Shown here: piece by piece, positions 439 to 57,742 of the stretch
Layout of the letters: every line of letters starts with the position of its first letter
How positions within the stretch are numbered: the first letter of the stretch is position 1
IMG/VR virus record: IMGVR_UViG_3300043172_000799
Span: 1 to 64,000 of that record
Length of the DNA: 64,000 nt
Strand: one strand, 5' to 3'
Origin: a virus
Translations under genes and position numbers: made by a program
Notes under the pieces: generated by a model
What the model saw: the letters and a program-made list of their open reading frames with translations, nothing else
Told to the model about the DNA's origin: nothing
The model's database searches: none

Positions 439-482
439 AATTACTCCTTTCCAACTTGGCTAATGTGTGTGTGTGTGTAGTA

Positions 483-17808: not shown

Positions 17809-18030
17809 ATGGTTGATGAGAAAGGAAGAATTTGCACTGTCTGTGATGTGTATAAATTATGGGAAGAATTTGGAATAGAGAAATATGTAAAGTCAGGACA
17901 CAGATCCAACTGTAAGGTCTGTGAAGCTAATAAGAAAGCTGAATATTACCAGAAGAATAAGGATGACATTAAGAAACAACATGCAGAATATTATTTAAAG
18001 TTGAAGGAGGCATATGGTGGAGAAATATAG
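17809..18030 (+). CDS. HNH-family zinc-finger fragment, 73 aa (copy 2a)
   Basis: Start at ATG 17809 behind GAGGAGAGG. It has the family finger KGRICTVCDVYKLWEEFG...CKVCEA and the beginning of the Lys/Asn-rich linker, but no nuclease core. It overlaps the next HNH gene by 17 bp and supplies its AAGGAGG site. It looks like the front end of a tandem duplication, either decayed or kept as a small DNA-binding protein. Confidence 0.65.
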   Translation: MVDEKGRICTVCDVYKLWEEFGIEKYVKSGHRSNCKVCEANKKAEYYQKNKDDIKKQHAEYYLKLKEAYGGEI

Positions 18031-21987: not shown

Positions 21988-21989
21988 AA

Positions 21990-22280
21990 TCAATCTTCTT
22001 CTCCTTTATCCACATCATAATCAGAAATACTATATTCATTTTCTTCTAAGTATGCTTCAAAAGTAGAATCAATATCCCCTAGTTGGTATTCTGTTCTTCT
22101 GGTTTTTGCTATCTTAGCTACAGAATCAAAATAAAGAATACAACCTGTAGTTACAGATTCCCCGTCCTCAAATCTATCATCATTATAAATTTCACCTTGC
22201 ATGCACACAGAGCCTAACTCCGGTGCTTGAAACGGGTTTTCCGTTCGCACCACTATACTCCAATTATCTAAACGTGTCAT
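21990..22280 (-). CDS. Hypothetical protein, 96 aa
   Basis: Start at ATG 22280 (AAGGAGAAAGA upstream, ATGA overlap with the previous stop). It begins MTRLDNWSIVV and is acidic. Possibly shares function with the ParB-like gene it is coupled to. Not recognised. Confidence 0.65.
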   Translation of the reverse strand: MTRLDNWSIVVRTENPFQAPELGSVCMQGEIYNDDRFEDGESVTTGCILYFDSVAKIAKTRRTEYQLGDIDSTFEAYLEENEYSISDYDVDKGEED

Positions 22281-26871: not shown

Positions 26872-27837
26872 ATGAAGAGAATATGTATCCGTTGTAATAT
26901 AGAAAAAGAAGAGAGTGAGTTTTATAGAGAACGTAAAGTCTGCTTAATATGCACTAAGATACAAAGGGACAATCGTAGTAAGAAAAGGGTAGATTATTAC
27001 AATGCCAACAAAGATTTTATTTTGAAAAATCATAAAATAACAAAAAAAGTATGTAGTGGATGTAAGGAGGAAAAATTTCTTTCTGAGTTTTGGCTGGCTA
27101 ATAACACTAAGGACTATACTACAGCTAAATGTGCTGTATGCACTAAAAAGTACTCTTGGTCTTATTCCCAAAATGAACTAAGACCTAATAAAATCAGAGA
27201 CGAAATTTTACAAAAACAAGAAGATGATGGTATTCTCAAGTATTGCCCTAATTGTGAGACTGAAAAGTCTATATGTAAATTTAGAGTGTCAGGTAGAGAA
27301 GGAGGGTACTATGATTTTAGAACCCCTCTTTGCATTGAATGTGGAGATATTACTAAAAAAGAACTAGCACATGAAAAATACATGGAGAATCAACAATACA
27401 ATATTAATAAAAGTAAAGCTTATAATAAAAAGAAGTATCACGAAGATAAGCAATACAAAATACTGTCCAATTTACGCTCCAGATTACACACCGCAGTTAC
27501 TAATGAGGGACACAACAAATATGGCAGTACTATGGGTTTAGTTGGTTGTAGTGGGGAAGATCTGGTGTTTCATTTAGAAAACCAGTTCACGGAAAGAATG
27601 TCTTGGGATAACCATACTACCAATGGTTGGCATATAGACCATATAATCCCTTGTAATTACTTTGACTTATCCAAAGAAGAGAACCAGAGAATCTGTTTTC
27701 ATTATTTGAATTTACAACCTCTTTGGTGGAATGATAATCTTTCAAAAAAGAAGAACCATATTCCAGATAATATAGAAGAGATTGTACTTAGTATTAAAGA
27801 AGAATTGGGATGGGAAGTCTCTACTACAGTACAGTAG
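26872..27837 (+). CDS. HNH homing endonuclease (family copy 3)
   Basis: 321 residues. Three N-terminal Cys knuckle pairs (CIRCNIEK...CLIC; CSGCKEEK...CAVC; CPNCETEK...CIEC) are followed by a KKYHEDKQYK linker and the HNH core GWHIDHIIPCNYFDL...CFHYLNLQPLWWNDNLSKK. It shares the C-terminal half with the other copies in this window, but its fingers differ, consistent with a different target. Translation is probably controlled by the upstream hairpin. Ends in TAG. Confidence 0.88.
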   Translation: MKRICIRCNIEKEESEFYRERKVCLICTKIQRDNRSKKRVDYYNANKDFILKNHKITKKVCSGCKEEKFLSEFWLANNTKDYTTAKCAVCTKKYSWSYSQNELRPNKIRDEILQKQEDDGILKYCPNCETEKSICKFRVSGREGGYYDFRTPLCIECGDITKKELAHEKYMENQQYNINKSKAYNKKKYHEDKQYKILSNLRSRLHTAVTNEGHNKYGSTMGLVGCSGEDLVFHLENQFTERMSWDNHTTNGWHIDHIIPCNYFDLSKEENQRICFHYLNLQPLWWNDNLSKKKNHIPDNIEEIVLSIKEELGWEVSTTVQ

Positions 27838-43538: not shown

Positions 43539-43793
43539 ATGTTTAAGAAAGACAAAAAAATTAAAGAGTTAGAGAACAGAATACAGGGTATGAGTGAGAT
43601 AATCACTGACTTTGAGCGAAGTATATTTAAGGTAGAGGTGTATGAAGATTGCTCTTTGATCACAAATAAAGCTCTCTATGGAAGATCTGCTGTTGAAATC
43701 GAGGTGATAGAGACTAAAAATTTTATTATAGACGGAGCTTTCGACGGAAAGAAAGTATCTTTCAAATTGAAGCATCCTAGAACACGCCGATAG
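43539..43793 (+). CDS. Hypothetical coiled-coil protein, 84 aa
   Basis: Starts MFKKDKKIKELENRIQGMSE, a short coiled coil, then a beta-rich tail. Ends in TAG inside the AGGAGG of the next gene, another TAG clearly used as stop. Confidence 0.6.
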   Translation: MFKKDKKIKELENRIQGMSEIITDFERSIFKVEVYEDCSLITNKALYGRSAVEIEVIETKNFIIDGAFDGKKVSFKLKHPRTRR

Positions 43794-43803
43794 GAGGATA
43801 TAT

Positions 43804-43920
43804 TTGTTAAACAAAATTTGGAAAAAATGCAAGCATATATTTACTACACTATTACAGCACCGTCCTATTCCACAGCGATATGATATGCATAATATCACAG
43901 AATGGGATAGTCTCAAATGA
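43804..43920 (+). CDS. Hypothetical protein, 38 aa
   Basis: TTG 43804 behind AGGAGGATATAT, ending TGA 43920 and overlapping the next ATG by 4 bp. Basic (LNKIWKKCKHIFTTLLQHRP). Function unknown. Confidence 0.5.
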   Translation: MLNKIWKKCKHIFTTLLQHRPIPQRYDMHNITEWDSLK

Positions 43921-44108
43921 ATATAGTGTTTGTAGTGCAATATAGGGAACATGCATATCTGTATATTGATCAAGTATATTGTGTCACGGAGACAGAGGAA
44001 GATGCCATCATAGCCTGTGAGATATTGAATGGGCTGGATGAGGTAGCTACTTCTGGCTATGAGAAGGTTGATTATGTAACATATGGAGATTTTGTGGAAA
44101 AGGATTAA
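43917..44108 (+). CDS. Hypothetical protein, 63 aa
   Basis: Not recognised. Resembles short phage proteins with an AYLYIDQVYCVTETEEDAI segment. Coupled to the previous gene. Confidence 0.6.
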   Translation: MNIVFVVQYREHAYLYIDQVYCVTETEEDAIIACEILNGLDEVATSGYEKVDYVTYGDFVEKD

Positions 44109-44110
44109 GT

Positions 44111-44809
44111 ATGAGTAGAGCAGAAAGGAAGCATAATAAGAATGCCTCAGAAAAAGAATTGATGAAGTTATACCGAAGACAGAATTATTTATACAGAGAA
44201 ATGGGGAAATTAGGGTATAGGGAATTAGAGATTCCAATAAGACATGGATATGAAAAAAGATATGTTTTAAGAAGTGATATTGCCAGAAGCAAAAAAGCAC
44301 ATTTTCTAAATAGTATTCTATCCTTGGTTAATAACCCTATTCATAGTGGAAGTAAAAAATTTCTAAATAAAGACTATGAAACAAAGAAATATATCCCTAT
44401 GGAGCATAAATTAGGGTATATTTCTAAAAAAGAGTATGGGCTTCTTACCCCGAAAAAGCAATCTTATTTTAATGAATATTATAATAGGGGTTGGAAAGTG
44501 AACTATGTATTTGTAGGGTACACTTTAAATCTCCCTATGTGGATGTTCTCTACGAAGATCAAATCACATTATATTTATAGAGTTAAAATAACAGATGATG
44601 AGATGCAGGATGAATATGATGAAATACGCAATTACTTCTCTACTAATAACCTCTGGATAAAAATAGACCATGTTTTAGGTATCAGTCAGAATTATGATGA
44701 TTGGTGGGTGACGGGAAGAATAGCTAAGGATAGGGATCTGCGAATAGAAGCAGATAAGGAAATTGTAGAAGCTTATTACTCATATATTAGTCATAATAGG
44801 GAAAATTAA
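44111..44809 (+). CDS. Hypothetical basic protein, 232 aa
   Basis: Not recognised. Lys/Arg/Tyr-rich, suggesting nucleic-acid binding. Starts at ATG 44111, three bases after the previous stop. Confidence 0.6.
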   Translation: MSRAERKHNKNASEKELMKLYRRQNYLYREMGKLGYRELEIPIRHGYEKRYVLRSDIARSKKAHFLNSILSLVNNPIHSGSKKFLNKDYETKKYIPMEHKLGYISKKEYGLLTPKKQSYFNEYYNRGWKVNYVFVGYTLNLPMWMFSTKIKSHYIYRVKITDDEMQDEYDEIRNYFSTNNLWIKIDHVLGISQNYDDWWVTGRIAKDRDLRIEADKEIVEAYYSYISHNREN

Positions 44810-44815
44810 GCATAT

Positions 44816-44835
44816 ATGACTAATATATTAGTCAT
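44816..44835. promoter_or_regulatory. Perfect 20-bp palindrome
   Basis: ATGACTAATATATTAGTCAT is self-complementary over its whole length and lies 12 bp before ATG 44848. Operator or leader hairpin. Confidence 0.65.
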
Positions 44836-44847
44836 TAAGGAGAGGAT

Positions 44848-44955
44848 ATGAAGGTATTTAAAACAGGATTATCATTTAAAAAAGGTTATATAGCAGGGGG
44901 TATCTCTATGGTGTTGATTATTATGATAGTTCGATTTTTTTTACTAATGGTTTGA
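44848..44955 (+). CDS. Small membrane protein, 35 aa
   Basis: ATG 44848 behind AAGGAGAGGAT. A basic N-terminus, then a hydrophobic helix (GGISMVLIIMIVRFFLLMV). Function unknown. Confidence 0.5.
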   Translation: MKVFKTGLSFKKGYIAGGISMVLIIMIVRFFLLMV

Positions 44956-44979
44956 GTTTTATTATTAAGGAGATATATA

Positions 44980-45117
44980 ATGGAAGATTATAAAGAATGG
45001 GGGTTTGGTAGAGCAATGACTTACGTTGGATATGATGAAAGAGAATACAGTAAATGGAATGAAGGTACTGGCTCTAAGCTATGGATAAATAGAGAGAAGT
45101 TTAACCCTATAATCTAA
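44980..45117 (+). CDS. Hypothetical protein, 45 aa
   Basis: ATG 44980 behind AAGGAGATATATA, TAA at 45117. Begins MEDYKEWGFGRAMTYVGYDE. Not recognised. Confidence 0.5.
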   Translation: MEDYKEWGFGRAMTYVGYDEREYSKWNEGTGSKLWINREKFNPII

Positions 45118-45122
45118 CTATA

Positions 45123-45193
45123 CACTTGTGTGCCCCATACTCAAACTATATGATATAATAAATTATATAGTTTGAACAGGAGGCACACAAGTG
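45123..45193 (+). promoter_or_regulatory. Long double hairpin burying the TerS start
   Basis: CACTTGTGTGCC (45123-45134) is the exact complement of GGCACACAAGTG (45182-45193), and inside it CAAACTATAT (45142-45151) pairs with ATATAGTTTG (45165-45174). The right outer arm includes the GTG start codon of TerS and abuts its AGGAGG site. TTGTGT with TATGAT at 17 nt inside the element may also be a promoter. It may instead be a packaging site, as it lies directly before terS. Confidence 0.75.
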
Positions 45194-45949
45194 TCAGAAG
45201 AAGATAATAAAGAAGAACTCACCACAAATCAAAAGAAATCTCAGGCTCAGCGAAAGAGATGGGATAGGAATGCAGAGATAACCACTGGGAAACACTCTGA
45301 TAGAAGATCCAAACGATATGACTTCAAATGTTTTGAGGGAATTAGATTATCTGCCATGCAAAAAGAGTTTGTGGTGCGGTTCATGGACCCCCCATATAAT
45401 GGAATTAGAAAGAATCGCTACAAAGCATATTTGGAAGCAGGATTTACAGCATCTAATGATAATAGCTTAAAAGCAAATTGTACGGCAGCCTTAAATAAAA
45501 GCAATATCAAGGAAGCAATCCTAGCATATCAGAAGTACGCACTTCAAAATTTAAAAATAGAAGCAACCTCACAAAACGTTGATGCCCTGCGATTAAGAGC
45601 CACATATTCAGTGTCTGACTTTTATGAGACAGATGGCACTCCAAAACCTTTAGATAAAATATCTCCAGAAATGCTAGTCGTTATAGATGATATAGATGTT
45701 GATTGGAAATTATCTAATAAGGCTGAAAAGAAAATAATTAAATACACGCTGGCTAATCGTGAGAAAGCTATGAAGTCTTTACAAGAAATACTAGGTATTA
45801 TGAAGACTATGGAGACTATGGAGATCAGTGTGCCGGTTAGTAGTGGCAAGAATGCTATTGAAAATATAGGACAGAACAAGGATGCAGGTCCTAGAATCTC
45901 CATGAATATCACAGTAGGCAATCCTGCGAAGAAGGATTCTGATGGCTAA
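45191..45949 (+). CDS. terS: Terminase small subunit
   Basis: 252 residues. A helix-turn-helix region (LSAMQKEFVVRFM...NRYKAYLEAGFTASNDNSLKANCTAALNKSNIKEAI) matches the terminase_2 style of DNA-recognition domain that picks the packaging site; the rest is oligomerisation and TerL contact sequence. GTG start behind GGAGGCACACAA. Overlaps terL by 8 bp, as expected. Confidence 0.85.
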   Translation: MSEEDNKEELTTNQKKSQAQRKRWDRNAEITTGKHSDRRSKRYDFKCFEGIRLSAMQKEFVVRFMDPPYNGIRKNRYKAYLEAGFTASNDNSLKANCTAALNKSNIKEAILAYQKYALQNLKIEATSQNVDALRLRATYSVSDFYETDGTPKPLDKISPEMLVVIDDIDVDWKLSNKAEKKIIKYTLANREKAMKSLQEILGIMKTMETMEISVPVSSGKNAIENIGQNKDAGPRISMNITVGNPAKKDSDG

Positions 45950-48638
45950 GAAAGATTTAAGGAAAGCAAATAATATTCAAGATGTCAACTTTGACTTTAA
46001 TTTATCTGAGAAACAATATGAAGCATTAGTTTCAATTGCAACAGAATTATTTTTTGGTGGAGCAAAAGGAGCTGGCAAAGATCAGGCTTTAGATACATTA
46101 TTTTTAACTCCAACTGGGTTTAAAAAAAATATAGAATTAAATGTCGGAGATAGAATATGTAACCCTGATGGATCAATATCTAAAATACTACAAACACATC
46201 CAATTGAGAAAAAGAAAAAATATGTTTTACATTTCCGAGATGGGAGAAAAGCAGAATGCGGTGCAGATCATATTTGGTATGGGGCAAGAAAACATAACAA
46301 GTATCAGAGTTCTTGGAACGAAACAGGATGCACAAAAACAGCTAAAGAGATATATGCAATAACTAAAAGAGAAAAATTGAAATCTAAAAGAGAATGGTTC
46401 CGAATACCATTACCAAATCCTGTTAAATTTGATAACATTTATCAAAATAACAGAACAATTGAACCTTATTTGTTGGGAGTACTACTTGGAGACGGTTGTA
46501 TTACAGGAAATAACCAAACTAAAATTTCTACAGTAGATCAAGTGCATATGCTATCACAATTTTCTGAATATAACTTTAGAATTGTAGACTTCTCTAAATA
46601 TAATCTTGAAAAAAACAAAAACTTATTTGATTTATTTTTTACTGGGACACAGTGGAAAACTTTAGATAAGAATCTCAATAAATTAGGATTATTAGGAACC
46701 AGAAGTGCTACTAAGTTTATTCCAGAAGAATATAAAATTGCACCCAAAGAAGTCAGGTTAGCTGTGTTACAAGGATTATTAGATACGGATGGAAGTGTAG
46801 ATTGTAGTACTAGAAATGTAAGATACAGTTCTACATCCTTTCAATTAGCAGAAGATGTTGCTTGGTTGGCTAGAAGTTTAGGCTTTTACGCTTCTGTACA
46901 AATAAAAAAAGCAAGAGATAAAGTAGAAAAAGATGGCACAATATACCATTGCAAAGAAGGAAGAATAGTTTTTATACGAACATATAATGATTCACAATTA
47001 TTCAGACTGGAAAGACATAAAGACAAAGTAAAATCTGGAGTAGTAAGACCATTAGGATTATCCGTTGTAGATGTTACAATAGAAGAAGAAGTTGAGATGA
47101 GATGTATTTCAGTAGACAATCCCAACGGTTTGTACATCACTGAAGAGTTCATAGTTACACATAATTCACATCTTATCAGATATGCTTCTATATTATATTG
47201 TCTGGCAGTACCAGGACTTCAGGTATACCTATTTAGACGAACCAGTAAACAAGTTAGATCTAACCATCTATATGGATCTACTGGATATCTTAGTGTGCTC
47301 AAGCCATTTATAGATGCCGGAGTTGTAGATATAAATCAATCAGATAATAGAATAGACGTTTTTCATGAGGGAAAAGCAACATCTTCTATATTTCTCAGGC
47401 ATCTGCAACATGAATCAGATGTTGAGATATATAGGGGCTGTGAAATCCATTTTTTAATAATGGATGAGCTTACACATTTTACTTCTTATCAGTATAAGAC
47501 TCTTAGAAGTTGTGTACGTTTAGGTTTGAAGATTGACTATACAGAATTACAGAAAATGTATCCTTTTATGGTAGAAGGATTTTTTCCGAGGATATTGTGT
47601 GCATCAAATCCAGGATCTGCTGGACATTCATGGGTTAAAGCAAGTTGGATTGATAGACTTGTTCCAAATGTTATAGAGAGGATGCCTGACGAGGACGGAG
47701 GCATGTTACGGCAGTTCATCCCTGCTAAACTTGAAGACAATTACCATCTTATGGAAAGTGATCCATCATATAAGGCAAAACTTATAGGTGTAGGTGGAGA
47801 TGCTTCTAAGGCTATGCTCGATGGAAATTGGGAGATTGCAAGTGGATCTGCATTGGCAGATTGTTGGGATAAACGGTTTAACGTGATGCCACCATTTGAT
47901 ATACCTTCAAGTTGGGTAATAGATAGAGGTTTTGACTGGGGATCAGCCAAACCTTTCGCTTGCTGTTATTTCGCTGAAGCATCAGGATCTACTGCTACTC
48001 TTCATAATGGTAAGACATTCACTCCACCAGAGGGGACAATATTTATGATTGGGGAACTGTATGGAAACAATCCGGCAGATTCAGACCCAGACACGGGAGG
48101 CAAGTTATCTGCCAGACAGATAGGAGCTAGGATAAAAGAATATGAGGGATCTGTAGAATGGGGGCATAGAGTAAGGGCAGGAGCAGGAGATGGTCAGATA
48201 TTTGAGGCAAATAGAGCAGGAACAGAGGAATGCATAAATGATAATCTACTGAAAGGATATAATCTGGAAATAGTAGAAGGTGATCATGCTTCTTACATTA
48301 ACCAATATACTGAGGAATTGTTCACAAGAGCAGATAAATCAAAAGGATCTCGCAAAAAAGGATTGGAGCTTTTACGCTCTTATCTAATAGATGCTCACTG
48401 GCAAGAAATAATTAGTGATACTCCTGAGAAGAATGAGTTTATACCACCGGAGGAAGCAGGATTGGTATTTTTTGAAAATTGCAAGAATGCTATAAGAACT
48501 CTTCCTACTATTCCAAGAGATGAGCATGATCCAGAAGATGTGAATACAGAAGCACCCGATCATATATATGATGTTGTTAGATACCGTCTGGCATCTAATA
48601 GACCAAAATTTACAAGGCTAACCCTATTAGGGGTGTAG
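45942..48638 (+). CDS. terL: Terminase large subunit precursor with intein
   Basis: 898-residue precursor. Exteins are residues 1-46 and 409-898, giving a 536-residue TerL after splicing. The Walker A motif is split: GGAKGAGK | intein | SHLIRYA. Walker B is IHFLIMDELTHF. The C-terminal nuclease shows DRGFDWGSAKPF, GAGDGQIFEAN and a late PDHIYDVVRY Asp. It should power ATP-driven DNA packaging and cut the concatemer, and needs splicing to rebuild the P-loop. Ends TAG TAA. Confidence 0.93.
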   Translation: MAKKDLRKANNIQDVNFDFNLSEKQYEALVSIATELFFGGAKGAGKDQALDTLFLTPTGFKKNIELNVGDRICNPDGSISKILQTHPIEKKKKYVLHFRDGRKAECGADHIWYGARKHNKYQSSWNETGCTKTAKEIYAITKREKLKSKREWFRIPLPNPVKFDNIYQNNRTIEPYLLGVLLGDGCITGNNQTKISTVDQVHMLSQFSEYNFRIVDFSKYNLEKNKNLFDLFFTGTQWKTLDKNLNKLGLLGTRSATKFIPEEYKIAPKEVRLAVLQGLLDTDGSVDCSTRNVRYSSTSFQLAEDVAWLARSLGFYASVQIKKARDKVEKDGTIYHCKEGRIVFIRTYNDSQLFRLERHKDKVKSGVVRPLGLSVVDVTIEEEVEMRCISVDNPNGLYITEEFIVTHNSHLIRYASILYCLAVPGLQVYLFRRTSKQVRSNHLYGSTGYLSVLKPFIDAGVVDINQSDNRIDVFHEGKATSSIFLRHLQHESDVEIYRGCEIHFLIMDELTHFTSYQYKTLRSCVRLGLKIDYTELQKMYPFMVEGFFPRILCASNPGSAGHSWVKASWIDRLVPNVIERMPDEDGGMLRQFIPAKLEDNYHLMESDPSYKAKLIGVGGDASKAMLDGNWEIASGSALADCWDKRFNVMPPFDIPSSWVIDRGFDWGSAKPFACCYFAEASGSTATLHNGKTFTPPEGTIFMIGELYGNNPADSDPDTGGKLSARQIGARIKEYEGSVEWGHRVRAGAGDGQIFEANRAGTEECINDNLLKGYNLEIVEGDHASYINQYTEELFTRADKSKGSRKKGLELLRSYLIDAHWQEIISDTPEKNEFIPPEEAGLVFFENCKNAIRTLPTIPRDEHDPEDVNTEAPDHIYDVVRYRLASNRPKFTRLTLLGV
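46080..47165 (+). other. LAGLIDADG intein in the TerL Walker A, probably class 3 (WCT)
   Basis: Residues 47-408 of the precursor (362 aa). The C-terminal junction is VTHN|S, canonical. The N-terminal residue is Asp in DQALDTLFLTPTG, not Cys or Ser. Block B has ADHIW, block F has MRCISVDNPNGLY and block G has the T of VTHN, which together give the W-C-T triplet of class 3 inteins that splice without a first-residue nucleophile. Two LAGLIDADG-like motifs (LLGVLLGDG and LQGLLDTDG) mark a homing endonuclease. Confidence 0.88.
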
Positions 48639-48651
48639 TAAAGGACAAAAT

Positions 48652-50424
48652 ATGGGATTAGAAAATTTACTAAACCACCCCTTAGTGGGAATAAAAGAAA
48701 GAGGACAGATTTTAAATTTCTCTGTTAACACTATGCATCCAGAATATACAGAATGGACACCTATTTGGAAAAAATGTAGAGATGCAAGAATAGGGCAGCG
48801 TGCAATAAAAAGTGCAGGGATAACTTATCTCCAAAAAATGAATGGGCAAAGCCCACAGGAGTATGAGAACTATAAAGAGAGAGCACAATGGTATGGTGCT
48901 ACTGGACGTACTGTAGAAAGCTACTTAGGTATGATATACAGAAAAGAACCACACATTGTAATTAAAGAGAGTAAAAGTTCTACGAATGTAGTTGAAAAAG
49001 AACTTTTTGATAAAGATGTTTACTACTCATTGACATCCTCCAAAGGGAAATCTTTCAGTTCTTTATCTAGAGATGTAGTGGAAGAGCTTATTGTGGTAAA
49101 TAGAGTAGGAATGCTAATAGATTATCCTTCCATAGATCCAATGTTATTAGAGGGTATGAGTAAATTTGATTCTGAAAAGATGAACTACAAGCCATTGCTT
49201 TCTATGTATAAGACAGAAAGTATTATAAACTGGCACTATGAGTATATTAATAATATCCCTATTCCTGTACTATTTGTTCTTAAAGAAGAAATATACGATA
49301 CTGCTTCTATGGGAGCACTATCACCTACAAAAGTAGATTCTTATAGAGTATTATTCTTAGAACCGTATTTCCCAGAAGATGGGGTATTAAGAGGAAGATA
49401 TAAAGAAATGTCTTTCATCGAAACAACTATTAAGGAGAGAGGTGTAGAGATTTTAGTTTCTTCAGCAACTAATATTGGGTATCCACAAAAAGATGGGGAA
49501 TATATTGACCATATCCCGTTCTATATTATGACAGATACTGGTATAGAATTCACAGAAATAAAAGACAGTATGATATATGACTTATCTGAAACTAATATTG
49601 GACACTATCGTAATAGTGCTGATTGGGAGAATGAACTTCACATTGTTGGTGCTAAGACTGCTATATTTCCAGGTTGGGATAAGAAGACTAATGGTAATCC
49701 TGTACTGGGAGGGGCACTTGCTTGTTCTAAAGGTTGTGAGCCTTATATGTTGGAAGCTTCCTCAGACAGTGGTAATCAAAAAGAAATGGATGCTAAGGAA
49801 ATGCGAATGAGTGTTTTAGGTGCTGAGAGGATATCCCAGAAAGGACGATATATGCCTTCTACCGAGACAGCTAAATTAAATACTTCCAGTGAAGCATCTA
49901 CATTGACGGGTATGGCTACATTTGCCAGTGAAGCATTCTCTGAAATATTAACAGAGCAATTACAATGGGATAAGAATAATGATTATGTTGTAGATTTGAC
50001 ATTAAATACGGATTATTATCTCGATGATATTTCTGGAGATGAGTTACTTAAATGGATGGATGCGTACCAAAGAGGTGGTATTTCTTATGATATTTATTAT
50101 TATAATTTAGAGAAAAAAGAAGCTTTTCCTCCTGAATGGGATAAGGAGAAAGAATTGGCATCTTTAGAAGAATCACTTGAAAGACAAACAAATCTTCAGG
50201 ATGAAAAATTCATATCATTATCTGAAAGACTAGCAGAATTGGAAGATGTAAATTCCACAATTACAACTACCTCTACTGGAAATACTATGATGTCACTTTC
50301 TACAGCAGAAAAAGGGGCTGGTCAATCTACCAGTGTAGAATTGGATACTTCTAAACAGCGTAACAATGAGACTTCTGGAACTGGTGGAGCAACACCTATA
50401 GAAACAGAAGAAATTGAAGAATAA
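48652..50424 (+). CDS. Portal protein (DUF4055-like)
   Basis: 590 residues directly after terL. The N-terminal pattern YLQKMNGQSPQEYENYKERA then GRTVESYLGMIYRKEP is typical of DUF4055 portal-type proteins. The middle is beta-rich and the C-terminus has a Glu-rich coiled coil (residues about 500-540). It should form the head vertex ring through which DNA passes. Confidence 0.85.
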   Translation: MGLENLLNHPLVGIKERGQILNFSVNTMHPEYTEWTPIWKKCRDARIGQRAIKSAGITYLQKMNGQSPQEYENYKERAQWYGATGRTVESYLGMIYRKEPHIVIKESKSSTNVVEKELFDKDVYYSLTSSKGKSFSSLSRDVVEELIVVNRVGMLIDYPSIDPMLLEGMSKFDSEKMNYKPLLSMYKTESIINWHYEYINNIPIPVLFVLKEEIYDTASMGALSPTKVDSYRVLFLEPYFPEDGVLRGRYKEMSFIETTIKERGVEILVSSATNIGYPQKDGEYIDHIPFYIMTDTGIEFTEIKDSMIYDLSETNIGHYRNSADWENELHIVGAKTAIFPGWDKKTNGNPVLGGALACSKGCEPYMLEASSDSGNQKEMDAKEMRMSVLGAERISQKGRYMPSTETAKLNTSSEASTLTGMATFASEAFSEILTEQLQWDKNNDYVVDLTLNTDYYLDDISGDELLKWMDAYQRGGISYDIYYYNLEKKEAFPPEWDKEKELASLEESLERQTNLQDEKFISLSERLAELEDVNSTITTTSTGNTMMSLSTAEKGAGQSTSVELDTSKQRNNETSGTGGATPIETEEIEE

Positions 50425-50430
50425 AAGTAG

Positions 50431-50459
50431 TTGACAGATAACTAAAATCATGATATAAT
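50431..50459 (+). promoter_or_regulatory. Consensus promoter inside the structural module
   Basis: TTGACA (50431-50436), 17-nt spacer, TATAAT (50454-50459), just after the portal stop. It offers independent transcription of the following small genes and minor head protein. Confidence 0.8.
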
Positions 50460-50480
50460 TAGCGTATATAAAAATAAAAA

Positions 50481-50512
50481 ACCACCTCTTCTAATACAAT
50501 AGGATTGGTGGT
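50481..50512 (+). promoter_or_regulatory. Leader hairpin downstream of the promoter
   Basis: ACCACC (50481-50486) pairs with GGTGGT (50507-50512). No T-run follows, so it is more likely a leader structure than a terminator. Confidence 0.5.
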
Positions 50513-50543
50513 CTTATCTATCTAGTCAAAATAGGAGAAAACA

Positions 50544-50699
50544 ATGCCAGTACAACGAAGTACCTCAAATGGAAAACCCTGTTATAAATGGGGATCTCAA
50601 GGAAGATGTTACACATATACAGCAGGAGATGAAGAAAGTAGAAAAAGAGCCAAAGCTAAAGCAGAAGCACAAGGAAGGGCTGTACATGCTAGTAAATGA
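50544..50699 (+). CDS. Small basic phage protein, 51 aa
   Basis: ATG 50544 behind AGGAGAAAACA. NGKPCYKWGSQGRCYTYTAG followed by SRKRAKAKAEAQGRAVHAS is a pattern I recognise from short proteins found near phage head genes. Role unknown; the basic tail may bind DNA. Confidence 0.7.
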   Translation: MPVQRSTSNGKPCYKWGSQGRCYTYTAGDEESRKRAKAKAEAQGRAVHASK

Positions 50700-50850
50700 A
50701 GAAGAAAGAAGCAGAATTGATAAGGAATTTTTTGACAGCATTGTAATAGCTGAATTATCTTGTGTAAAACTTGATGAAAAAGAAAAGATATCAAATTTAG
50801 ATTTTAAGCCAGAAGATCTAAATTACTTCTCATACACATTTCTAAAATAA
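50686..50850 (+). CDS. Hypothetical protein, 54 aa
   Basis: Start at ATG 50686 (AAGGAAGGGCTGTAC upstream), overlapping the previous gene; an earlier start at 50569 would lie wholly within it. Acidic (MLVNEEERSRIDKEFFDSIV). Not recognised. Confidence 0.55.
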   Translation: MLVNEEERSRIDKEFFDSIVIAELSCVKLDEKEKISNLDFKPEDLNYFSYTFLK

Positions 50851-50869
50851 AATCAAAAAGAGGACTCCT

Positions 50870-51958
50870 ATGTCAACAGCAACAAATCAATTGCAGGATC
50901 TATCTGTAAATAATCAGCATTTAATTGAGCAACATAAAAATGAAATTATTTCTACAATGCTGATCTTTTTTAAGCATATGGAAAAACTAATAAATAAGGA
51001 AATAAAAGCATCATTTGATGATACAAAAACAATAGTGGATAAGAATGCATTAAAAAGGAGATTAAATGTAATTCAGGAAAGGGAATTAAATAAGATACAA
51101 AAACAGATAACAAAGGATGTACATAAATTTTTAGGATCACAGGCAAAGAACTATGAAAAACAATTGAAAGGTGTCTTGAAAGACGTTTCTAAATATATAA
51201 AAGTGCATAGTATTAGTGAGAAAGCTTTGAAACATAATTATGATAAAGAGCCTATTGTTATGGAAAAAGGATCATACAATACACTTGCTTCTTTATGGGC
51301 CACTTTCTTTCTGAGTGTAAGAACCAATTTAAATCAGAACACAGAATCTGCATATAAGTTAAAGAAAACTACCAGAGAGTATACTAGTGATTTAAATAGA
51401 GGCTATAAAATTAGTGAAAATAGTTTGAATGGGATTATAGCCGTATATATACAACAGGCAGTTGGAAGTGCAGCCAAATCTGTTAATGGTGTAAATGAAG
51501 AGTTCATTCGTGGGTATTCATGGAGTTCCGTACTTGACAGTAAAACGAGTGATTTTTGTATTTCTCACGCATATAGATTTTGGATTTATAATCACCCTGA
51601 ATTGAGTACATTAGAAGCAGAGATTTACAGCCCTGCCCATTTCCGTTGCCGTGCCAGTAACCCCCCAATAATAAAATCATATAGAGAATTAGGAATATCT
51701 GCCAGTGAATTAACAACATCTCAGAAATCACTATTGGCAAATAGTAAAACAGAGACATTGACCTACAATCAGTTTTTTGAAAGACAGACGGAGAGTGTGA
51801 AGAAGGAAATATTAGGAGTTGTGAGATATAATGCATACCAACAAGGAAACTTAGATGTTTCTGCGTTCTATACAAGAGATGGAAGAAAACTCACATTAAA
51901 ACAACTAGAAAAAAAGAATATTCAGATAGCAGATGAATACTTGAGATATGTCAATTAA
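50870..51958 (+). CDS. Minor head protein (Mu F/SPP1 gp7-like)
   Basis: 362 residues. Long helical N-terminal half, then SWSSVLDSKTSDFCISHAYR and SPAHFRCRASNPP, the W..xxD.kT...C and HxRCR pattern of the Phage_Mu_F head morphogenesis domain. It usually follows the portal and acts in procapsid assembly or as a minor capsid protein. Confidence 0.8.
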   Translation: MSTATNQLQDLSVNNQHLIEQHKNEIISTMLIFFKHMEKLINKEIKASFDDTKTIVDKNALKRRLNVIQERELNKIQKQITKDVHKFLGSQAKNYEKQLKGVLKDVSKYIKVHSISEKALKHNYDKEPIVMEKGSYNTLASLWATFFLSVRTNLNQNTESAYKLKKTTREYTSDLNRGYKISENSLNGIIAVYIQQAVGSAAKSVNGVNEEFIRGYSWSSVLDSKTSDFCISHAYRFWIYNHPELSTLEAEIYSPAHFRCRASNPPIIKSYRELGISASELTTSQKSLLANSKTETLTYNQFFERQTESVKKEILGVVRYNAYQQGNLDVSAFYTRDGRKLTLKQLEKKNIQIADEYLRYVN

Positions 51959-51975
51959 AGAAAAGAGGGAAAATA

Positions 51976-52167
51976 GTGGAAAATGATGTAAATAACTATA
52001 AAATAAACATTCCAGAACAGAGTGAGTGGGTCTGTTATATGTTTGGGAATAAACCTGATGGGATGGGGATGCGTTATATACCTTCTGTCGGGAATGTCCC
52101 AAATGTGTTTGTTAGGTTTATGATGAGAATATGTTTTGGATGTACTTGGATAAAGGAGAATAAATGA
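51976..52167 (+). CDS. Hypothetical protein, 63 aa
   Basis: GTG start at 51976 behind AGAGGGAAAATA. Contains several Met/Gly/Trp residues and a C-terminal CFGCTW. Not recognised. Overlaps the 5' phosphoesterase fragment by 4 bp. Confidence 0.55.
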   Translation: MENDVNNYKINIPEQSEWVCYMFGNKPDGMGMRYIPSVGNVPNVFVRFMMRICFGCTWIKENK

Positions 52168-52232
52168 CAGTAACAGAATGGTTATTAGAGAAACAGCCTA
52201 ATCCAATTGGAAGTGACAATTTTTATGGGTGA
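52164..52232 (+). pseudogene. 5' remnant of the phosphoesterase gene
   Basis: ATG 52164 with a strong AAAGGAGAATAA site begins MTVTEWLLEKQPNPIGSDNF-YG and stops. It parallels the start of the intact gene at 53360 (MTRIQWLLGNIPNPTESSDF). The HNH gene begins inside it. This is the original 5' end of the phosphoesterase gene, cut off by the HNH insertion, while the functional gene acquired a diverged new start. Confidence 0.75.
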
Positions 52233-53388
52233 GGCAGTGGTAGAGCAATTTGATACATTTACTGTAGATATTCCCCTTCTATCAAAAACACATAAATCCT
52301 ATTATAAGGCATATATGTTTTTAAAGACGGGACTATTATATTGCACTAAATGTGGAGAATTGCTAGAGTTTGATAAATTTGGCAGTAAGAAAGAATGTAT
52401 CCCATTCTACAAAAGAAGTCAATGTCTTGACTGTGAGAATAAGACCAGAGGTTTCTCATACAGAAATGAAAGTCTGACCTCTAAAAGATATGCTAATGAT
52501 GGGATACCAAATACATTATTTAATGATTTTGAAGTTTTGCATCAAGATGATGCAAAACACCTACCAAAAAGCCAAAAGACATACTACAGATTGTACATGT
52601 TTTTAAAAGAAAAACTTTTATACTGTGGTAAATGCAATAAACTGTTAGATATAGATAAGTTTCGATTAGATGACAAAAAAGTATTATTTGGTAGGAGAAC
52701 TTATTGTCATGCTTGTGAGCTTAAATACTCTAGAAGTACGAATGTTAAGGAAAAGCGTTCAAATAACCATAAGCTAAAGTATGTAGAAAATAGAGATCAC
52801 ATTTTAGAATATCAGGAAGAATATCGACAGAATAATAAAGAGAAGATATCTAAAAGGAATAAGAAATATAGAAAAGAAAATAAAGATAAAATAAAAGAAT
52901 GGCAATCGGAATACTATAATGAGAATAGAGATGAGAGAATTAAATATGTTATTGGGTATACAAAGAAAAGAAGAAAGAAAGACCCATATTTCCGAATGAA
53001 ATTGATTTATAGGAAACAATTGTGGAGAGTGTTTGCTGGAGAGGAAAGAGAAATAAGATCAAAGGAACTGTTAGGGTGCAGTTACGAGGAGTTTTTAGAG
53101 TACTTGGAACTCCCAGAAGGGAAAGAGTATACAGACTTTGAATTAGACCACGTAATACCCATAGAAGCCTTTAACATTTGTGAGGATAGTGAGAAAATTT
53201 TATGTTCTCATTACACAAACTTTCAATTATTATCTAAACGGGATAACAGAAGTAAGAGTGATTTCTGGGAAGGAATAAGGTGGAGAGATGTAAGTCCAGA
53301 AGATAAGAAAAGTGCAAGATTAGAAATATTAAACAAAATAAAAAGGGGAGCTATTAACAATGACAAGAATCCAGTGGTTGCTAGGTAA
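52225..53388 (+). CDS. HNH homing endonuclease (family copy 4)
   Basis: About 387 residues from ATG 52225 (a TTG at 52207 is also open). Two zinc-finger units (YCTKCGELLEFDKFG...CLDC; YCGKCNKLLDIDKF...CHAC), a Lys/Asn linker, then the core FELDHVIPIEAFNI...CSHYTNFQLLS. The gene lies between a truncated and an intact start of the phosphoesterase gene and overlaps the latter by 29 bp, providing its ribosome site. Confidence 0.87.
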   Translation: MGEAVVEQFDTFTVDIPLLSKTHKSYYKAYMFLKTGLLYCTKCGELLEFDKFGSKKECIPFYKRSQCLDCENKTRGFSYRNESLTSKRYANDGIPNTLFNDFEVLHQDDAKHLPKSQKTYYRLYMFLKEKLLYCGKCNKLLDIDKFRLDDKKVLFGRRTYCHACELKYSRSTNVKEKRSNNHKLKYVENRDHILEYQEEYRQNNKEKISKRNKKYRKENKDKIKEWQSEYYNENRDERIKYVIGYTKKRRKKDPYFRMKLIYRKQLWRVFAGEEREIRSKELLGCSYEEFLEYLELPEGKEYTDFELDHVIPIEAFNICEDSEKILCSHYTNFQLLSKRDNRSKSDFWEGIRWRDVSPEDKKSARLEILNKIKRGAINNDKNPVVAR

Positions 53389-54571
53389 TATACCAAATCC
53401 AACAGAATCTTCAGATTTCTACTATTTGATGGATGATTTCTCAGCAGAGTTTGGGGAAACTCCCATTGATAATTTCAAGAGATACGCCAGAAAAGCTATG
53501 GGAGAATACAGAGATCAAACATCTCCAGAAAACACACTAACAACAGAAATTACAGATAATGGGTTAGAAGTAAAATTAAAATCGTTTGGGATAACTACAG
53601 AAGAAGGAATCAGGAAACAAGCAGGATTATCCGTAGAAGAATGGGATTGTTCTGCTTTCAGGGTAAAATCCTCCCAGAATGAACAGAACCCTTGGCATTC
53701 AGTTAATGCTGAATTCCGAAAGAAGAAGGAGCTTGCATTTCCCCTAATTCAGCAAGCAGAAGTTAAGATAGAGCAATATGAAAATGTTGCTAGAAAACCA
53801 TCAGACACAACAGTAAATGTATCTGATCTCCATGCACCGATGCATGATGAGAAAGCTATGGATATCTCTATACAGGTTATGAAAGACCTATATCCTTCAA
53901 CCGTAGTTATAAACGGAGATGCATTAGATCTTACTGATTTCTCTGATAAGTTTTTAGCGTCTTTGGAATGCCGAAATCAAACACAGAAGGGAATCAATGC
54001 CGTTGCAAAGTATATTGGGCAGATAAGACAGGTTTGCCCAGAAGCTAAAATAGTATTTATGGAAGGGAATCATTCAAATAGAATGAGAAAAGTAATCCTT
54101 AAAAATGTAGCAGGAGCTATAGGATTAAAGAGAGCTGATAATCTTGATGGATATGAAGCCCTTTCCGTACCAAATCTTCTTTGTTTAGATACGCTAGATG
54201 TAGAATGGCAACCATATCCTGAAGGTGAGTATTGGGTTAATGAGAATTTAAGATTTCATCATGGAGAGAAATTAAACTTAAACAATATAGCTAATGAAAG
54301 TTTTGTAAACCAAGTAATGGGGCATAATCACAAGCATCTCATGGTAAGTAGGACAAAGCATATATACAATGGCAGGAAGCAGATATGGGTAGCTTCCTTC
54401 GGATGTATGTGTATGATGGATGGGAGTGTTCCTTCAGTAAGTAGCCATTCTGATTGGCAGAGTGGCTTTGGGGTTGTGTATCATACAGGAACTACTTGCC
54501 AGCCTATCCCTATTTACATCGAAGATGGGAAAGCTTTATTTGAAGGCAAGGTTTATGAGGCTAGAATTTAA
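53360..54571 (+). CDS. Calcineurin-like metallophosphoesterase
   Basis: 403 residues. Motifs in order: VSDLHAP (D156, H158), INGDALDL (D187), FMEGNHS (N237, H238), RFHHGE (H300/301) and VMGHNHK (H322, H324), the complete two-metal site. The N-terminal 140 residues are a separate helical domain. Substrate unknown; in phages such enzymes may process nucleic acid or nucleotides. Confidence 0.85.
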   Translation: MTRIQWLLGNIPNPTESSDFYYLMDDFSAEFGETPIDNFKRYARKAMGEYRDQTSPENTLTTEITDNGLEVKLKSFGITTEEGIRKQAGLSVEEWDCSAFRVKSSQNEQNPWHSVNAEFRKKKELAFPLIQQAEVKIEQYENVARKPSDTTVNVSDLHAPMHDEKAMDISIQVMKDLYPSTVVINGDALDLTDFSDKFLASLECRNQTQKGINAVAKYIGQIRQVCPEAKIVFMEGNHSNRMRKVILKNVAGAIGLKRADNLDGYEALSVPNLLCLDTLDVEWQPYPEGEYWVNENLRFHHGEKLNLNNIANESFVNQVMGHNHKHLMVSRTKHIYNGRKQIWVASFGCMCMMDGSVPSVSSHSDWQSGFGVVYHTGTTCQPIPIYIEDGKALFEGKVYEARI

Positions 54572-54636
54572 ATATACCCTATAAGGTATAAAAGGAGAAT
54601 ATACCCCATAGGGTATAGGATGGAACATCCACAAGG

Positions 54637-54688
54637 TCAGTACAAGTTGTTTCTTTTCGACGAGAGTTTCTTGTACTGATTTAATTTT
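54637..54688 (+). terminator. Hairpin terminator after the phosphoesterase gene
   Basis: TCAGTACAAG (54637-54646) and CTTGTACTGA (54670-54679) form a perfect 10-bp stem, then TTTAATTTTTA. Two small ATACC/GGTAT palindromes precede it (near 54576 and 54602). It isolates the Cas12-like unit from upstream transcription. Confidence 0.75.
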
Positions 54689-54691
54689 TAC

Positions 54692-54720
54692 TTGACAGAC
54701 CCTCTTTCCTGTGGTATGCT
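54692..54720 (+). promoter_or_regulatory. Promoter 1 of the Cas12-like unit
   Basis: TTGACA (54692-54697), 17-nt spacer, TATGCT (54715-54720). Confidence 0.75.
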
Positions 54721-54749
54721 TTATAGGCATATTACAGGAGGAGGGTTTT

Positions 54750-54809
54750 TTGTTAGTAGATAAAATATTTTTATGCTTGACAAATACCTATTACTGTGTT
54801 AGTATTTAA
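54750..54809 (+). CDS. Possible 19-aa leader peptide
   Basis: AGGAGGAGGG is followed by TTG 54750 and 18 further codons (MLVDKIFLCLTNTYYCVSI) to TAA 54809, before the nuclease gene. It overlaps promoter 2. It may be a leader peptide or a chance frame; the strong ribosome site is the main support. Confidence 0.3.
   Translation: MLVDKIFLCLTNTYYCVSI
54777..54805 (+). promoter_or_regulatory. Promoter 2 of the Cas12-like gene
   Basis: TTGACA (54777-54782), 17-nt spacer, TAGTAT (54800-54805), 33 bp before the GTG start. Confidence 0.75.
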
Positions 54810-54838
54810 ATAGATCAAAAATATAAAGGAGATATTTA

Positions 54839-56182
54839 GTGGGCAATGTGTTGACAAAGCTGATACAGATAATACCAGATGATGATATTAATGGTACGTA
54901 TAAAATTATACGTGATTGGATGTACCATAGTACATCACTTGCAAATCTTATTATGACTGAGACATATGTAATAACACAAAGAGCAAGAGCCTTGTGCACT
55001 GCTCAGCCTGAATTAGATTATTTTCAGGCTGTTGCAAAAATGAAGGTTGAACGTGTTGGAAGTTATATTGGTAAAGTCACAGAAAAGACAATAGGTAGTA
55101 GTTTTGGGTATTGTTTATCTAAATCCCCTAATTATGCAGAAAATATTCCAGGGGCTATTCGTACCAAAATAGATAAGGTGGTTGGACAACACTTTCAAGC
55201 AGATGTAAAAACCAATGGATTGCTGAAGGGAAATTGTTCTCTTAGATCTTACAGCCGTAAAAACATGGCTGTATATCTACCCAGTAGTAAGGGTGCTTCT
55301 AAGTTTACTTGTGAGGATGGTAACTACTATTTTAGTACCATTAACAAATTGCGATTTAAAGTATTTTTAGGTAGGGACAATAGCAAAAACAAATTAGCTA
55401 TTGACAGGATTATTTCTGGTGAGTATAAAATGCCTGATGTATCCATAAAGATTAAGGATAATAAAATATTTGTATTGGCACCTATAACAATTGAAGTAAC
55501 AGATTTGGGATTAGACCCAGAGCTATCAGTTGGTGTAGACTTAGGAATTACTATTCCTGCGGTGTGTGCATTGTCCACTGGATTAGATAGAGCATTTATA
55601 GGTAATGGCACTGAGATAGTCAACTACCGTTTTTCTATGCGAAGAAAGAGAAAAAACTTACAGAAGAGTTTAACATTGTCTACAGGAGGAAGAGGAAGAG
55701 GAAAAAAACTAAAAGCATTAGAAAGGATAAGTAGTACTGAAAGTAATTGGATAAAGACTAAAAATCATTTAATTTCTAAAAAAATTATTGATTTTGCATT
55801 GACAAACGGAGCAGGAACTGTTAAGCTTGAATTATTAGAAGGGTTCACCAAAGAACATTCTTCCAACATTGTGCTAAAAGATTGGACGTATTATCAGTTA
55901 GGAGAGATGATACAGTACAAAGCAAAAATAGCTGGAATTGTAGTAGTACGGATAGATCCTTATCACACTTCACAGACATGCAACGTGTGTGGACATTCTA
56001 CTAAAGAGAACAGACCTAAAGGTACAAAAGGTCAAGCATACTTTAAATGTGTGTCTTGTGGGCATAAAACCAACGCAGACCTTAATGCTGCACGGAATAT
56101 TGCAAAATCGACAAAGATAGTAACTAAGAAGAAGGAATGCCAGTACCACAAATTGAAAAGTAACTTAATAGAAGTATCTTAA
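54839..56182 (+). CDS. Compact Cas12/TnpB-like RuvC nuclease beside a CRISPR array
   Basis: 447 residues, GTG start with AAAGGAG 7 nt upstream. The N-terminal half (1-225) is a helical then beta REC/wedge-like region. RuvC-I is VGVDLGIT (D234), RuvC-II is VKLELLEGF (E331), the zinc finger is CNVCGH...CVSCGH (C381, C384, C404, C407) and RuvC-III is TNADLNAARNIA (D414). All catalytic and zinc residues are intact. A basic linker (MRRKRKNLQK, GGRGRGKK) lies between RuvC-I and II, the bridge-helix position. Size fits TnpB and the smallest Cas12 proteins. No TnpA is nearby; a CRISPR array begins 203 bp downstream. Likely an RNA-guided DNA nuclease; subtype cannot be fixed by eye. Confidence 0.85.
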   Translation: MGNVLTKLIQIIPDDDINGTYKIIRDWMYHSTSLANLIMTETYVITQRARALCTAQPELDYFQAVAKMKVERVGSYIGKVTEKTIGSSFGYCLSKSPNYAENIPGAIRTKIDKVVGQHFQADVKTNGLLKGNCSLRSYSRKNMAVYLPSSKGASKFTCEDGNYYFSTINKLRFKVFLGRDNSKNKLAIDRIISGEYKMPDVSIKIKDNKIFVLAPITIEVTDLGLDPELSVGVDLGITIPAVCALSTGLDRAFIGNGTEIVNYRFSMRRKRKNLQKSLTLSTGGRGRGKKLKALERISSTESNWIKTKNHLISKKIIDFALTNGAGTVKLELLEGFTKEHSSNIVLKDWTYYQLGEMIQYKAKIAGIVVVRIDPYHTSQTCNVCGHSTKENRPKGTKGQAYFKCVSCGHKTNADLNAARNIAKSTKIVTKKKECQYHKLKSNLIEVS

Positions 56183-56385
56183 TGATTCTTCTGGGGCGGT
56201 TTCACGTCCTTATGCTGAGGGAGATTTCTCCGCTCTGGCAACCACATATTATTTTTGCGAAGTGGTTACAAACAACACCTTATTTGCAGTAAGATGAGAC
56301 ACAGAGATGTTTTGGTATATTCTTGTATAGGTTCGCACTTTTAGTGTTGTAAGTACTTGTTTTGGTGAGAGTTATTTTATAGGCA
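56183..56385 (+). ncRNA. Candidate tracrRNA or leader between nuclease gene and array
   Basis: 203 bp with no protein frame. GTAAGATGAGAC (56289-56300) matches the reverse complement of the first 12 nt of the repeat at 11 positions, an anti-repeat candidate. Stems such as GGAGA/TCTCC (near 56221) suggest folding. In small Cas12 loci the tracrRNA often lies here; in TnpB loci the guide RNA overlaps the gene's 3' end. It may simply be the array leader. Confidence 0.45.
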
Positions 56386-56738
56386 GTCACATCTTACATA
56401 GGTGTGTGGATTGAAACAGTATTAGATGGAATAGACAAATCCTTGACTAAGTCACATCTTACATAGGTGTGTGGATTGAAACGACGTATGATGCGAGAGA
56501 AGGCAATCAAGGCAGGGTCACATCTTACATAGGTGTGTGGATTGAAACAATTCTGATTCTGAGTATTTTATTATCTTTTTGGGTCACATCTTACATAGGT
56601 GTGTGGATTGAAACCATGCCCTTTTTTGAGACAGACAACTATTTTAAAGTCACATCTTACATAGGTGTGTGGATTGAAACTGGTATATTGTTGCAATTGT
56701 CTCAATCACGTCACATCTTACATAGGTGTACTGAAAAT
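56386..56738 (+). CRISPR. CRISPR array: five perfect 32-nt repeats plus one degenerate, five spacers
   Basis: Repeats at 56386-56417, 56451-56482, 56517-56548, 56583-56614 and 56649-56680 are identical: GTCACATCTTACATAGGTGT then GTGGATTGAAAC. The sixth, from 56710, keeps only the first 20 nt (to 56729) and then reads ACTGAAAAT. Spacers are 33, 34, 34, 34 and 29 nt. The degenerate end sets the transcription direction rightward, away from the nuclease gene. The repeat folds CACATC/GGTGTG around TTACATA and ends ATTGAAAC, the form typical of type I-C repeats. No cas1 or cas2 is in the window. Confidence 0.95.
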
Positions 56739-56890: not shown

Positions 56891-57742
56891 ATGACAGAAG
56901 AAAAATATCTCATTACAGAAAAAGGCAGAGAATGCCCTAAATGTGGTGAGTTTAAAGAATGGGAAGAATTTGGCAAGAGAAAAGGTAGACCATCTGGATA
57001 TGCCAGCAGTTGTAAAGAATGTGGCAGGAAGTATGCTAGGAAATATTCAAAAAGTAATAAACAAAAAATAAATCAATATGCAAAAGAGTACCGAAGTAAC
57101 AACAAAGAGCAAATAGAGGAGTATATGGTTGGCTACCGTACTACAAATGCTGAGAATACTAAAGAGTATAATAAAAGATATAAGGAAGAAAATAAAGAGT
57201 CTCTTAAAGAACATTACTTAGAGAATTTTGAAGCTACAAGACATATTAGAGAGCAATATTATTGTAATAATAAGGAAGTGATGCAGTCTAATAATAAGAG
57301 ATACCGTCACAACAACAAAGAAGGAATAAAAGCTAAAGCCAAAAGATATGATCTGGAAAATAAAGCTAAACGAAATTATAGAAATAAGGAGAGACGTAAA
57401 TCTGATCTTAATTTTAAAATAGTTACCAGCTTACGCTCCAGAATGGGTAATGCTTTGAAAGCTCAAAATTCTGAGAAATTTTTTCATGCATTAGATATAT
57501 TAGGATGTTCTCCAGCAGAGTGTGTTAGTCATCTGGAAAAACAATTCACAGAGGGTATGTCTTGGAGTAATCATGCAAAAGACGGATGGCATATAGATCA
57601 TATTAGACCTTGTGCTTCTTTTGACCTAACTATTCCTGAACAGCAAAAGTTATGCTTCCACTACACAAATTTACAACCTTTATGGTGGTATGATAATTTA
57701 GAAAAACTGGATAAATGGGAAGAAGACTTAGATAATGAATAA
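56891..57742 (+). CDS. HNH homing endonuclease (family copy 5)
   Basis: 283 residues. An N-terminal zinc finger (GRECPKCGEFKEWEEFG...CKECGRK), a long Lys/Asn/Glu repeat linker (EYRSNNKEQIEEY and similar), then the core GWHIDHIRPCASFDL...CFHYTNLQPLWW. Closest by eye to copy 1 at 8.9 kb. Translation is likely limited by the leader hairpin. Confidence 0.88.
   Translation: MTEEKYLITEKGRECPKCGEFKEWEEFGKRKGRPSGYASSCKECGRKYARKYSKSNKQKINQYAKEYRSNNKEQIEEYMVGYRTTNAENTKEYNKRYKEENKESLKEHYLENFEATRHIREQYYCNNKEVMQSNNKRYRHNNKEGIKAKAKRYDLENKAKRNYRNKERRKSDLNFKIVTSLRSRMGNALKAQNSEKFFHALDILGCSPAECVSHLEKQFTEGMSWSNHAKDGWHIDHIRPCASFDLTIPEQQKLCFHYTNLQPLWWYDNLEKLDKWEEDLDNE

What the first reader, a model, noticed from the sequence alone, without database searches (positions are those of the whole stretch)
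54692..56738. Phage-encoded compact Cas12/TnpB-like nuclease with its own promoter and an adjacent CRISPR array
A 447-residue RuvC nuclease with every catalytic residue intact (D234, E331, D414 and a four-Cys finger) lies 203 bp upstream of a clean array, in the same direction, in the middle of a phage structural module. A terminator upstream and two consensus promoters make it an independent unit. TnpB proteins normally sit in IS605-type elements without arrays, and most phage Cas12 proteins known to me are larger. A single-gene effector plus array without cas1/cas2 would be a streamlined phage immunity or competition system.
Basis: partly seen in the sequence, partly recalled or inferred. 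Interest (0 to 1): 0.95.

Follow-up and report, generated by a model that had tools for sequence, protein, structure and literature searches.

The report
Phage-carried miniature Cas12f CRISPR system
A large bacterial virus carries a tiny, complete-looking CRISPR cutting system (one Cas12f nuclease, its guide-scaffold RNA and five stored target sequences); it is a new, distant example of a kind already known from other phages, plasmids and bacteria, probably used against rival phages or plasmids.

Summary
At 54839-56182 (+) lies a 447-aa RuvC nuclease. It is followed 203 bp later by a CRISPR array of five identical 32-nt repeats plus one degenerate terminal repeat, with five spacers, in a 168-kb virus record. 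The protein is not an IS605 TnpB. It matches the Cas12u3/Cas12f profiles over its full length (E about 1e-100), models as Cas12f1, and falls in a 70-protein Cas12f clade (SH-aLRT 100) in which 52 members sit beside arrays; the TnpB-like outgroup almost never does. It is a deep, lone branch (at most 39% identity to anything found). No Cas1, no TnpA, and no second array or Cas12f/TnpB gene were found in the record. Best reading: a minimal type V-F1/V-U3 system that cuts DNA of competing elements. Phage-encoded V-F and V-U systems without adaptation genes have been reported since 2020, so this is a new member of a known kind. No spacer target was found, so what it attacks remains open.

The parts
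54634..54682 (+). Upstream hairpin (13-bp stem, then a T-rich stretch), probable terminator of the preceding head gene; the near-identical contig L144 ends inside it
   Evidence: fold z = -3.0; L144 is 100% identical to 43783-54657 and stops there
54705..54741 (+). Second terminator-like hairpin with T tail; overlaps promoter-like site 54692-54720
   Evidence: consensus scan
54777..54805 (+). Likely promoter of the unit: TTGACA-17-TAGTAT with TG before the second hexamer (consensus match only)
   Evidence: promoter-like sites are not more frequent than in shuffles
54839..56182 (+). cas12f (V-F1/V-U3 effector), 447 aa, RuvC D234/E331/D414, zinc finger C381/C384/C404/C407
   Evidence: PADLOC Cas12u3 4.5e-100 and Cas12f 9.5e-99; PDB phmmer 8hr5 6e-64; AlphaFold pLDDT 85 and Foldseek top hits all Cas12f; tree
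56183..56301 (+). tracrRNA-like scaffold; conserved core GGGCGGTTTCACGTCC at 56194-56209 followed by TGAGG
   Evidence: same core downstream of 8 other cas12f-like genes; a model built without the window finds it as the only hit in the 168-kb record
56275..56301 (+). Anti-repeat ACACCTTATTTGCAGTAAGATGAGAC, pairing with the 5' part of the repeat (GTCACATCTTAC...AGGTGT)
   Evidence: chained complementarity reached in 4/1000 gap shuffles; a simpler ungapped score is not significant
56386..56729 (+). CRISPR array: 5 exact 32-nt repeats, degenerate 6th repeat (56710-56729), 5 spacers
56891..57742 (+). Flanking HNH/endonuclease VII-like gene (context, not part of the CRISPR unit)
   Evidence: phrog_1035 1.7e-18
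52207..53388 (+). Another HNH/endonuclease VII-like gene in the same head module (context)
   Evidence: phrog_1035 8.3e-16

Best explanation
This is a minimal, phage-borne type V-F1 (V-U3) CRISPR-Cas system. A transcript from a promoter just upstream covers cas12f, the tracrRNA-like scaffold and the array. The repeat part of the crRNA pairs with the anti-repeat, and Cas12f (by analogy an asymmetric dimer on one guide RNA) loads it and cuts PAM-flanked double-stranded DNA matching one of five spacers. The likely benefit to the phage is interference with competing phages or plasmids in the same cell; an integrase gene suggests it could also act from a lysogen. Shown here: gene, array, conserved scaffold element, phylogeny, and no Cas1 or TnpA found. 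Inferred: transcription, dimer, cleavage, targets and benefit.
For: Full-length Cas12u3/Cas12f profile matches. Best solved relatives are Cas12f by sequence and by fold, ahead of TnpB. The Cas12f clade has SH-aLRT 100, with 52 of 70 members beside arrays against 2 of 19 outside. Scaffold element shared with remote cas12f loci and anti-repeat. Catalytic residues intact. No Cas1, no Y1 transposase, no second Cas12f/TnpB, no second array. V-U3 effectors with the layout cas12f-tracrRNA-array interfere with plasmids in E. coli (PMC7229846). Integrase gene at 1409-2344.
Against: No protospacer was found for any of the five spacers in the known phages or plasmids or in the phage's own genome, and two spacer cores have no exact match in viral contigs. 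No expression data. The anti-repeat is modest: an ungapped test reaches it in 214 of 1500 shuffles, and the held-out scaffold model gives E 0.24 over the whole record.
Confidence: 0.8

Rival explanations
1. IS605/IS607-type TnpB with an omega-RNA that happens to lie beside an array belonging to another (host) CRISPR system.
For: NCBIfam guided_TnpB subfamily matches (1.2e-49) and Pfam finds the shared Cas12f1-like_TNB domain. The scaffold RNA lies at the 3' end of the gene, as an omega-RNA would.
Against: The tree places it inside Cas12f with SH-aLRT 100. No TnpA in the record, single copy. The repeat resembles repeats of other cas12f loci such as Ectobacillus L070. The IS200 and IS607 TnpB models score far below their cut-offs. 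TnpB outgroup loci scanned lack the scaffold element (best 20 bits, E 0.89).
Confidence: 0.04
2. The unit works as a selfish RNA-guided homing-type cassette: spacers or the nuclease cut cassette-free sister phages so that the cassette spreads, like the neighbouring HNH genes.
For: It sits in a head module with HNH/EndoVII-like genes. The related phage L002 has HNH genes but no cas12f at this place. A contig 100% identical to the window stops 182 bp before the cas12f start.
Against: No spacer matches the L002 stretch held, and a 30-nt core of spacer 2 has no match in the whole L002 record. A contig end is weak evidence of a polymorphic site. No empty-site junction was seen.
Confidence: 0.07
3. 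The system targets host genes or regulates transcription rather than cutting rival DNA.
For: Phage CRISPR spacers against bacterial DNA have been reported (PMC7162821). Nuclease-dead Cas12f complexes exist (PDB 9n9c).
Against: Here all RuvC residues are intact, unlike dead Cas12f.
Confidence: 0.09

Closest known systems
Type V-F1 / V-U3 Cas12f1 systems (CnCas12f1, AsCas12f1, SpCas12f1; PMC7229846, PDB 8hr5, 8j12, 9i8y)
   Same: Effector size (422-497 aa), RuvC and zinc-ribbon layout, fold, gene-tracrRNA-array order, no adaptation genes.
   Different: About 24-32% identity to these solved ones; a lone deep branch; carried in a phage head module.
Phage-encoded V-U and V-F systems of huge phages (PMC7162821) and landfill viruses (PMC12607003)
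   Same: Virus-borne miniature type V effector beside a compact array, without Cas1/Cas2.
   Different: Whether it is the same lineage was not tested against those sequences; no close sequence relative was found in the collections searched.
Alicyclobacillus phage MMB025 'transposase' plus annotated CRISPR (PV686781, L014)
   Same: Phage, 447-aa Cas12f relative, mini-array next to it.
   Different: Array lies upstream and is shorter with a different repeat; 37% identity in the best segment; the other main branch of the Cas12f clade.
IS605/IS607 TnpB
   Same: Shared RuvC/TNB ancestry and 3' scaffold RNA principle.
   Different: No transposase found; array-fed guides; outside the TnpB outgroup in the tree.

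Membership tests
Type V-F1/V-U3 (Cas12f1) | Effector matches Cas12f/Cas12u3 profiles over full length and groups with them in a tree | tested here: met
Type V-F1/V-U3 (Cas12f1) | Intact RuvC catalytic residues and C-terminal zinc ribbon | tested here: met
Type V-F1/V-U3 (Cas12f1) | Adjacent CRISPR array | tested here: met
Type V-F1/V-U3 (Cas12f1) | tracrRNA scaffold between effector gene and array | tested here: met
   Scaffold core shared with other cas12f loci; only hit of a held-out model in the record
Type V-F1/V-U3 (Cas12f1) | Anti-repeat in the tracrRNA that pairs with the CRISPR repeat | tested here: inconclusive
   4/1000 shuffles in the chained-helix test, 214/1500 in the ungapped test
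Type V-F1/V-U3 (Cas12f1) | RNA-guided, PAM-dependent dsDNA cleavage as an asymmetric dimer | not testable with these tools
   needs biochemistry
IS605/IS607 TnpB | Sits in a transposon with TnpA and element ends | tested here: not met
   No Y1 transposase in the 168-kb record; a serine transposase of the IS607 type and element ends were not specifically tested
IS605/IS607 TnpB | Groups with TnpB, without arrays | tested here: not met
Complete adaptive CRISPR-Cas system | Adaptation genes cas1/cas2 | tested here: not met
   No Cas1 in the record; Cas2 not searched; the record may be incomplete

The most novel reading that the evidence does not exclude
The cas12f-array unit is a polymorphic, RNA-guided homing-like cassette in a phage head-gene hotspot otherwise occupied by HNH endonucleases, present in some and absent from other nearly identical phages.
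Probability: 0.07. Interest if true: 0.65.

Novelty: new member of a known kind. Interest (0 to 1): 0.36.

Why it matters
It adds a deep-branching, small Cas12f with its natural scaffold RNA and array, which is useful for studying how Cas12f arose from TnpB and as a candidate compact nuclease. It also shows again that virus-borne Cas12f with compact arrays is common: 28 viral or phage relatives yielded array spacers in a crude extraction, while many relatives in public records are still labelled 'transposase'.

Tried and rejected
Exact-repeat search in viral contigs: none. Close relatives in viral and genome collections by single-protein search: none. Spacer matches in phages and plasmids: only chance-level hits at E about 3-10; two spacer cores in viral contigs: none; own genome: none. 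Spacers of other viral cas12f arrays against phages: only a self-match, so no family-level target evidence either. An ungapped anti-repeat test was not significant; I kept this beside the chained test. TnpB reading rejected by tree and profiles. Near-identical phage contigs crossing the unit: none, only L144, which stops before it. A 2022 paper on virus-encoded CRISPR systems was not held in the library.

Full report
WHAT IS THERE. The window is the first 64 kb of a 168,384-bp IMG/VR virus record. ORF 54839-56182 (+) encodes 447 aa. After 203 bp comes an array of five exact 32-nt repeats and a degenerate sixth, with five spacers of 33, 34, 34, 34 and 29 nt. The degenerate repeat is at the end away from the gene, as expected if the gene side is the leader side. 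It is the only array in the record. Neighbours are phage head genes: portal, head morphogenesis protein, metallophosphoesterase, scaffold and major capsid protein, with two HNH/endonuclease VII-like genes among them.

WHAT THE PROTEIN IS. PADLOC gives Cas12u3 4.5e-100 and Cas12f 9.5e-99 over the full length. NCBIfam's broad guided_TnpB subfamily also matches, but the specific IS200 and IS607 TnpB models fall far below their cut-offs. The nearest solved chain is 8hr5 (CnCas12f1), 6e-64. An AlphaFold model (pLDDT 85) has Cas12f structures as its top Foldseek hits, ahead of TnpB. In a tree of 89 relatives (quick search, SH-aLRT support only) a 70-row clade with support 100 holds the window protein; 52 of its 70 members have an array-like repeat within 1.5 kb, against 2 of the 19 rows outside. 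The window protein is a long lone branch at the base of a 28-row subclade (support 97) of mainly Bacillota, viral and Bacteroidota members. Highest identity to any relative is 38-39%.

THE GUIDE RNA. The gap between gene and array carries GGGCGGTTTCACGTCC...TGAGG at 56194-56220. The same element (GGGCG, 6-nt loop, CGTCC, then NGAG) lies next to 8 other cas12f-like genes, including Anaerotignum, Ectobacillus, Salibacterium and viral loci. Nine of the 16 matches to the motif in 1.97 Mb of held sequence (both strands) fall within 500 bp downstream of these genes. In ten aligned relatives the NGAG element can pair with a downstream CTCN: read by eye (the alignment slips by a base in some rows), nine of ten pair, with C-G, U-A, U-G and G-C at the variable position; I did not run a formal count. 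A covariance model built from nine sequences, the window among them, matches further cas12f loci and, at E below 0.1, only cas12f-type loci. A model built without the window has one hit in the whole 168-kb record, exactly in this gap (19.1 bits, E 0.24 for the whole record). An anti-repeat at 56275-56301 pairs with the repeat; a chained-helix score is reached by 4 of 1000 shuffles of the gap, a simpler ungapped score by 214 of 1500. Clear anti-repeats occur between gene and array in several relatives (L063, L064, L041). I therefore take the gap as a tracrRNA, with good but not complete support.

WHAT IS ABSENT. No Cas1, no Y1 transposase TnpA, no second Cas12f/TnpB gene. The record may be a fragment, so absence is provisional. 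Cas2 was not searched.

FUNCTION. V-U3 Cas12f with the same gene-tracrRNA-array order cuts dsDNA and can block plasmids in E. coli (PMC7229846). Cas12f acts as an asymmetric dimer on one guide RNA (PMC8053092, abstract). Phage CRISPR systems usually lack adaptation genes, and some of their spacers target competing phages (PMC7162821). I infer the same here. An integrase-like gene at 1409-2344 suggests the phage may be temperate, in which case the system could protect a lysogen. None of the five spacers has a convincing target in phages or plasmids or in its own genome, and two were tried without success in IMG/VR. What it attacks is unknown.

CONTEXT AND VARIATION. A relative (L002, capsid 76% identical) keeps the head-gene order but has HNH genes and no cas12f between its phosphoesterase and scaffold genes. 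A 10,875-bp contig (L144) is 100% identical to 43783-54657 and ends inside a hairpin 182 bp before the cas12f start. This could be chance or could mark a polymorphic cassette; no empty junction was seen.

KNOWN OR NEW. Type V-U and V-F systems in phages were reported in 2020 (PMC7162821), and a 2025 survey found many virus-borne type V homologs, including some close to V-F1/V-U3, without adaptation genes (PMC12607003). I recovered 46 viral loci encoding relatives, most of the full-length ones with array-like repeats nearby. This is a new, deep-branching member of a known kind.

Noticed in passing
window 480-608 (-): Rfam tmRNA match (52.9 bits, above gathering) with a complete tRNA-like domain at both ends but only about 39 nt where a tmRNA has about 284 nt: the mRNA-like part is missing. 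A tyrosine-integrase-like gene lies close by (1409-2344, -). Could be a truncated tmRNA-like RNA or a trace of integration in ssrA.
   Followed up: partly
L144 (10,875 bp) against window 43783-54657: A second IMG/VR contig is 100% identical to the window and ends inside the hairpin at 54634-54682, just before the cas12f unit.
   Followed up: partly
window 54573-54617: Two near-identical palindromes TATACCCYATARGGTATA 27 bp apart between the phosphoesterase gene and the cas12f unit; found nowhere else in the window (no shuffle of 100 had as many matches).
   Followed up: no
window 18014-19090, 26872-27837, 52207-53388, 56891-57742: Several endonuclease VII/HNH-like genes, two of them in the head module, suggest many homing-type endonucleases.
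   Followed up: no
window 20710-21993 (-): ParB-like partition protein in a phage with an integrase; possible phage-plasmid lifestyle.
   Followed up: no
L051, L053, L054; L024, L025: Near-identical viral cas12f proteins carry arrays that share some spacers and differ in others, so arrays change although the effector hardly does.
   Followed up: no
L014 1753-3331 and L068: Alicyclobacillus phage MMB025 'transposase' beside an annotated CRISPR, and a Clostridioides difficile contig with a Cas12f relative beside a two-repeat array.
   Followed up: partly
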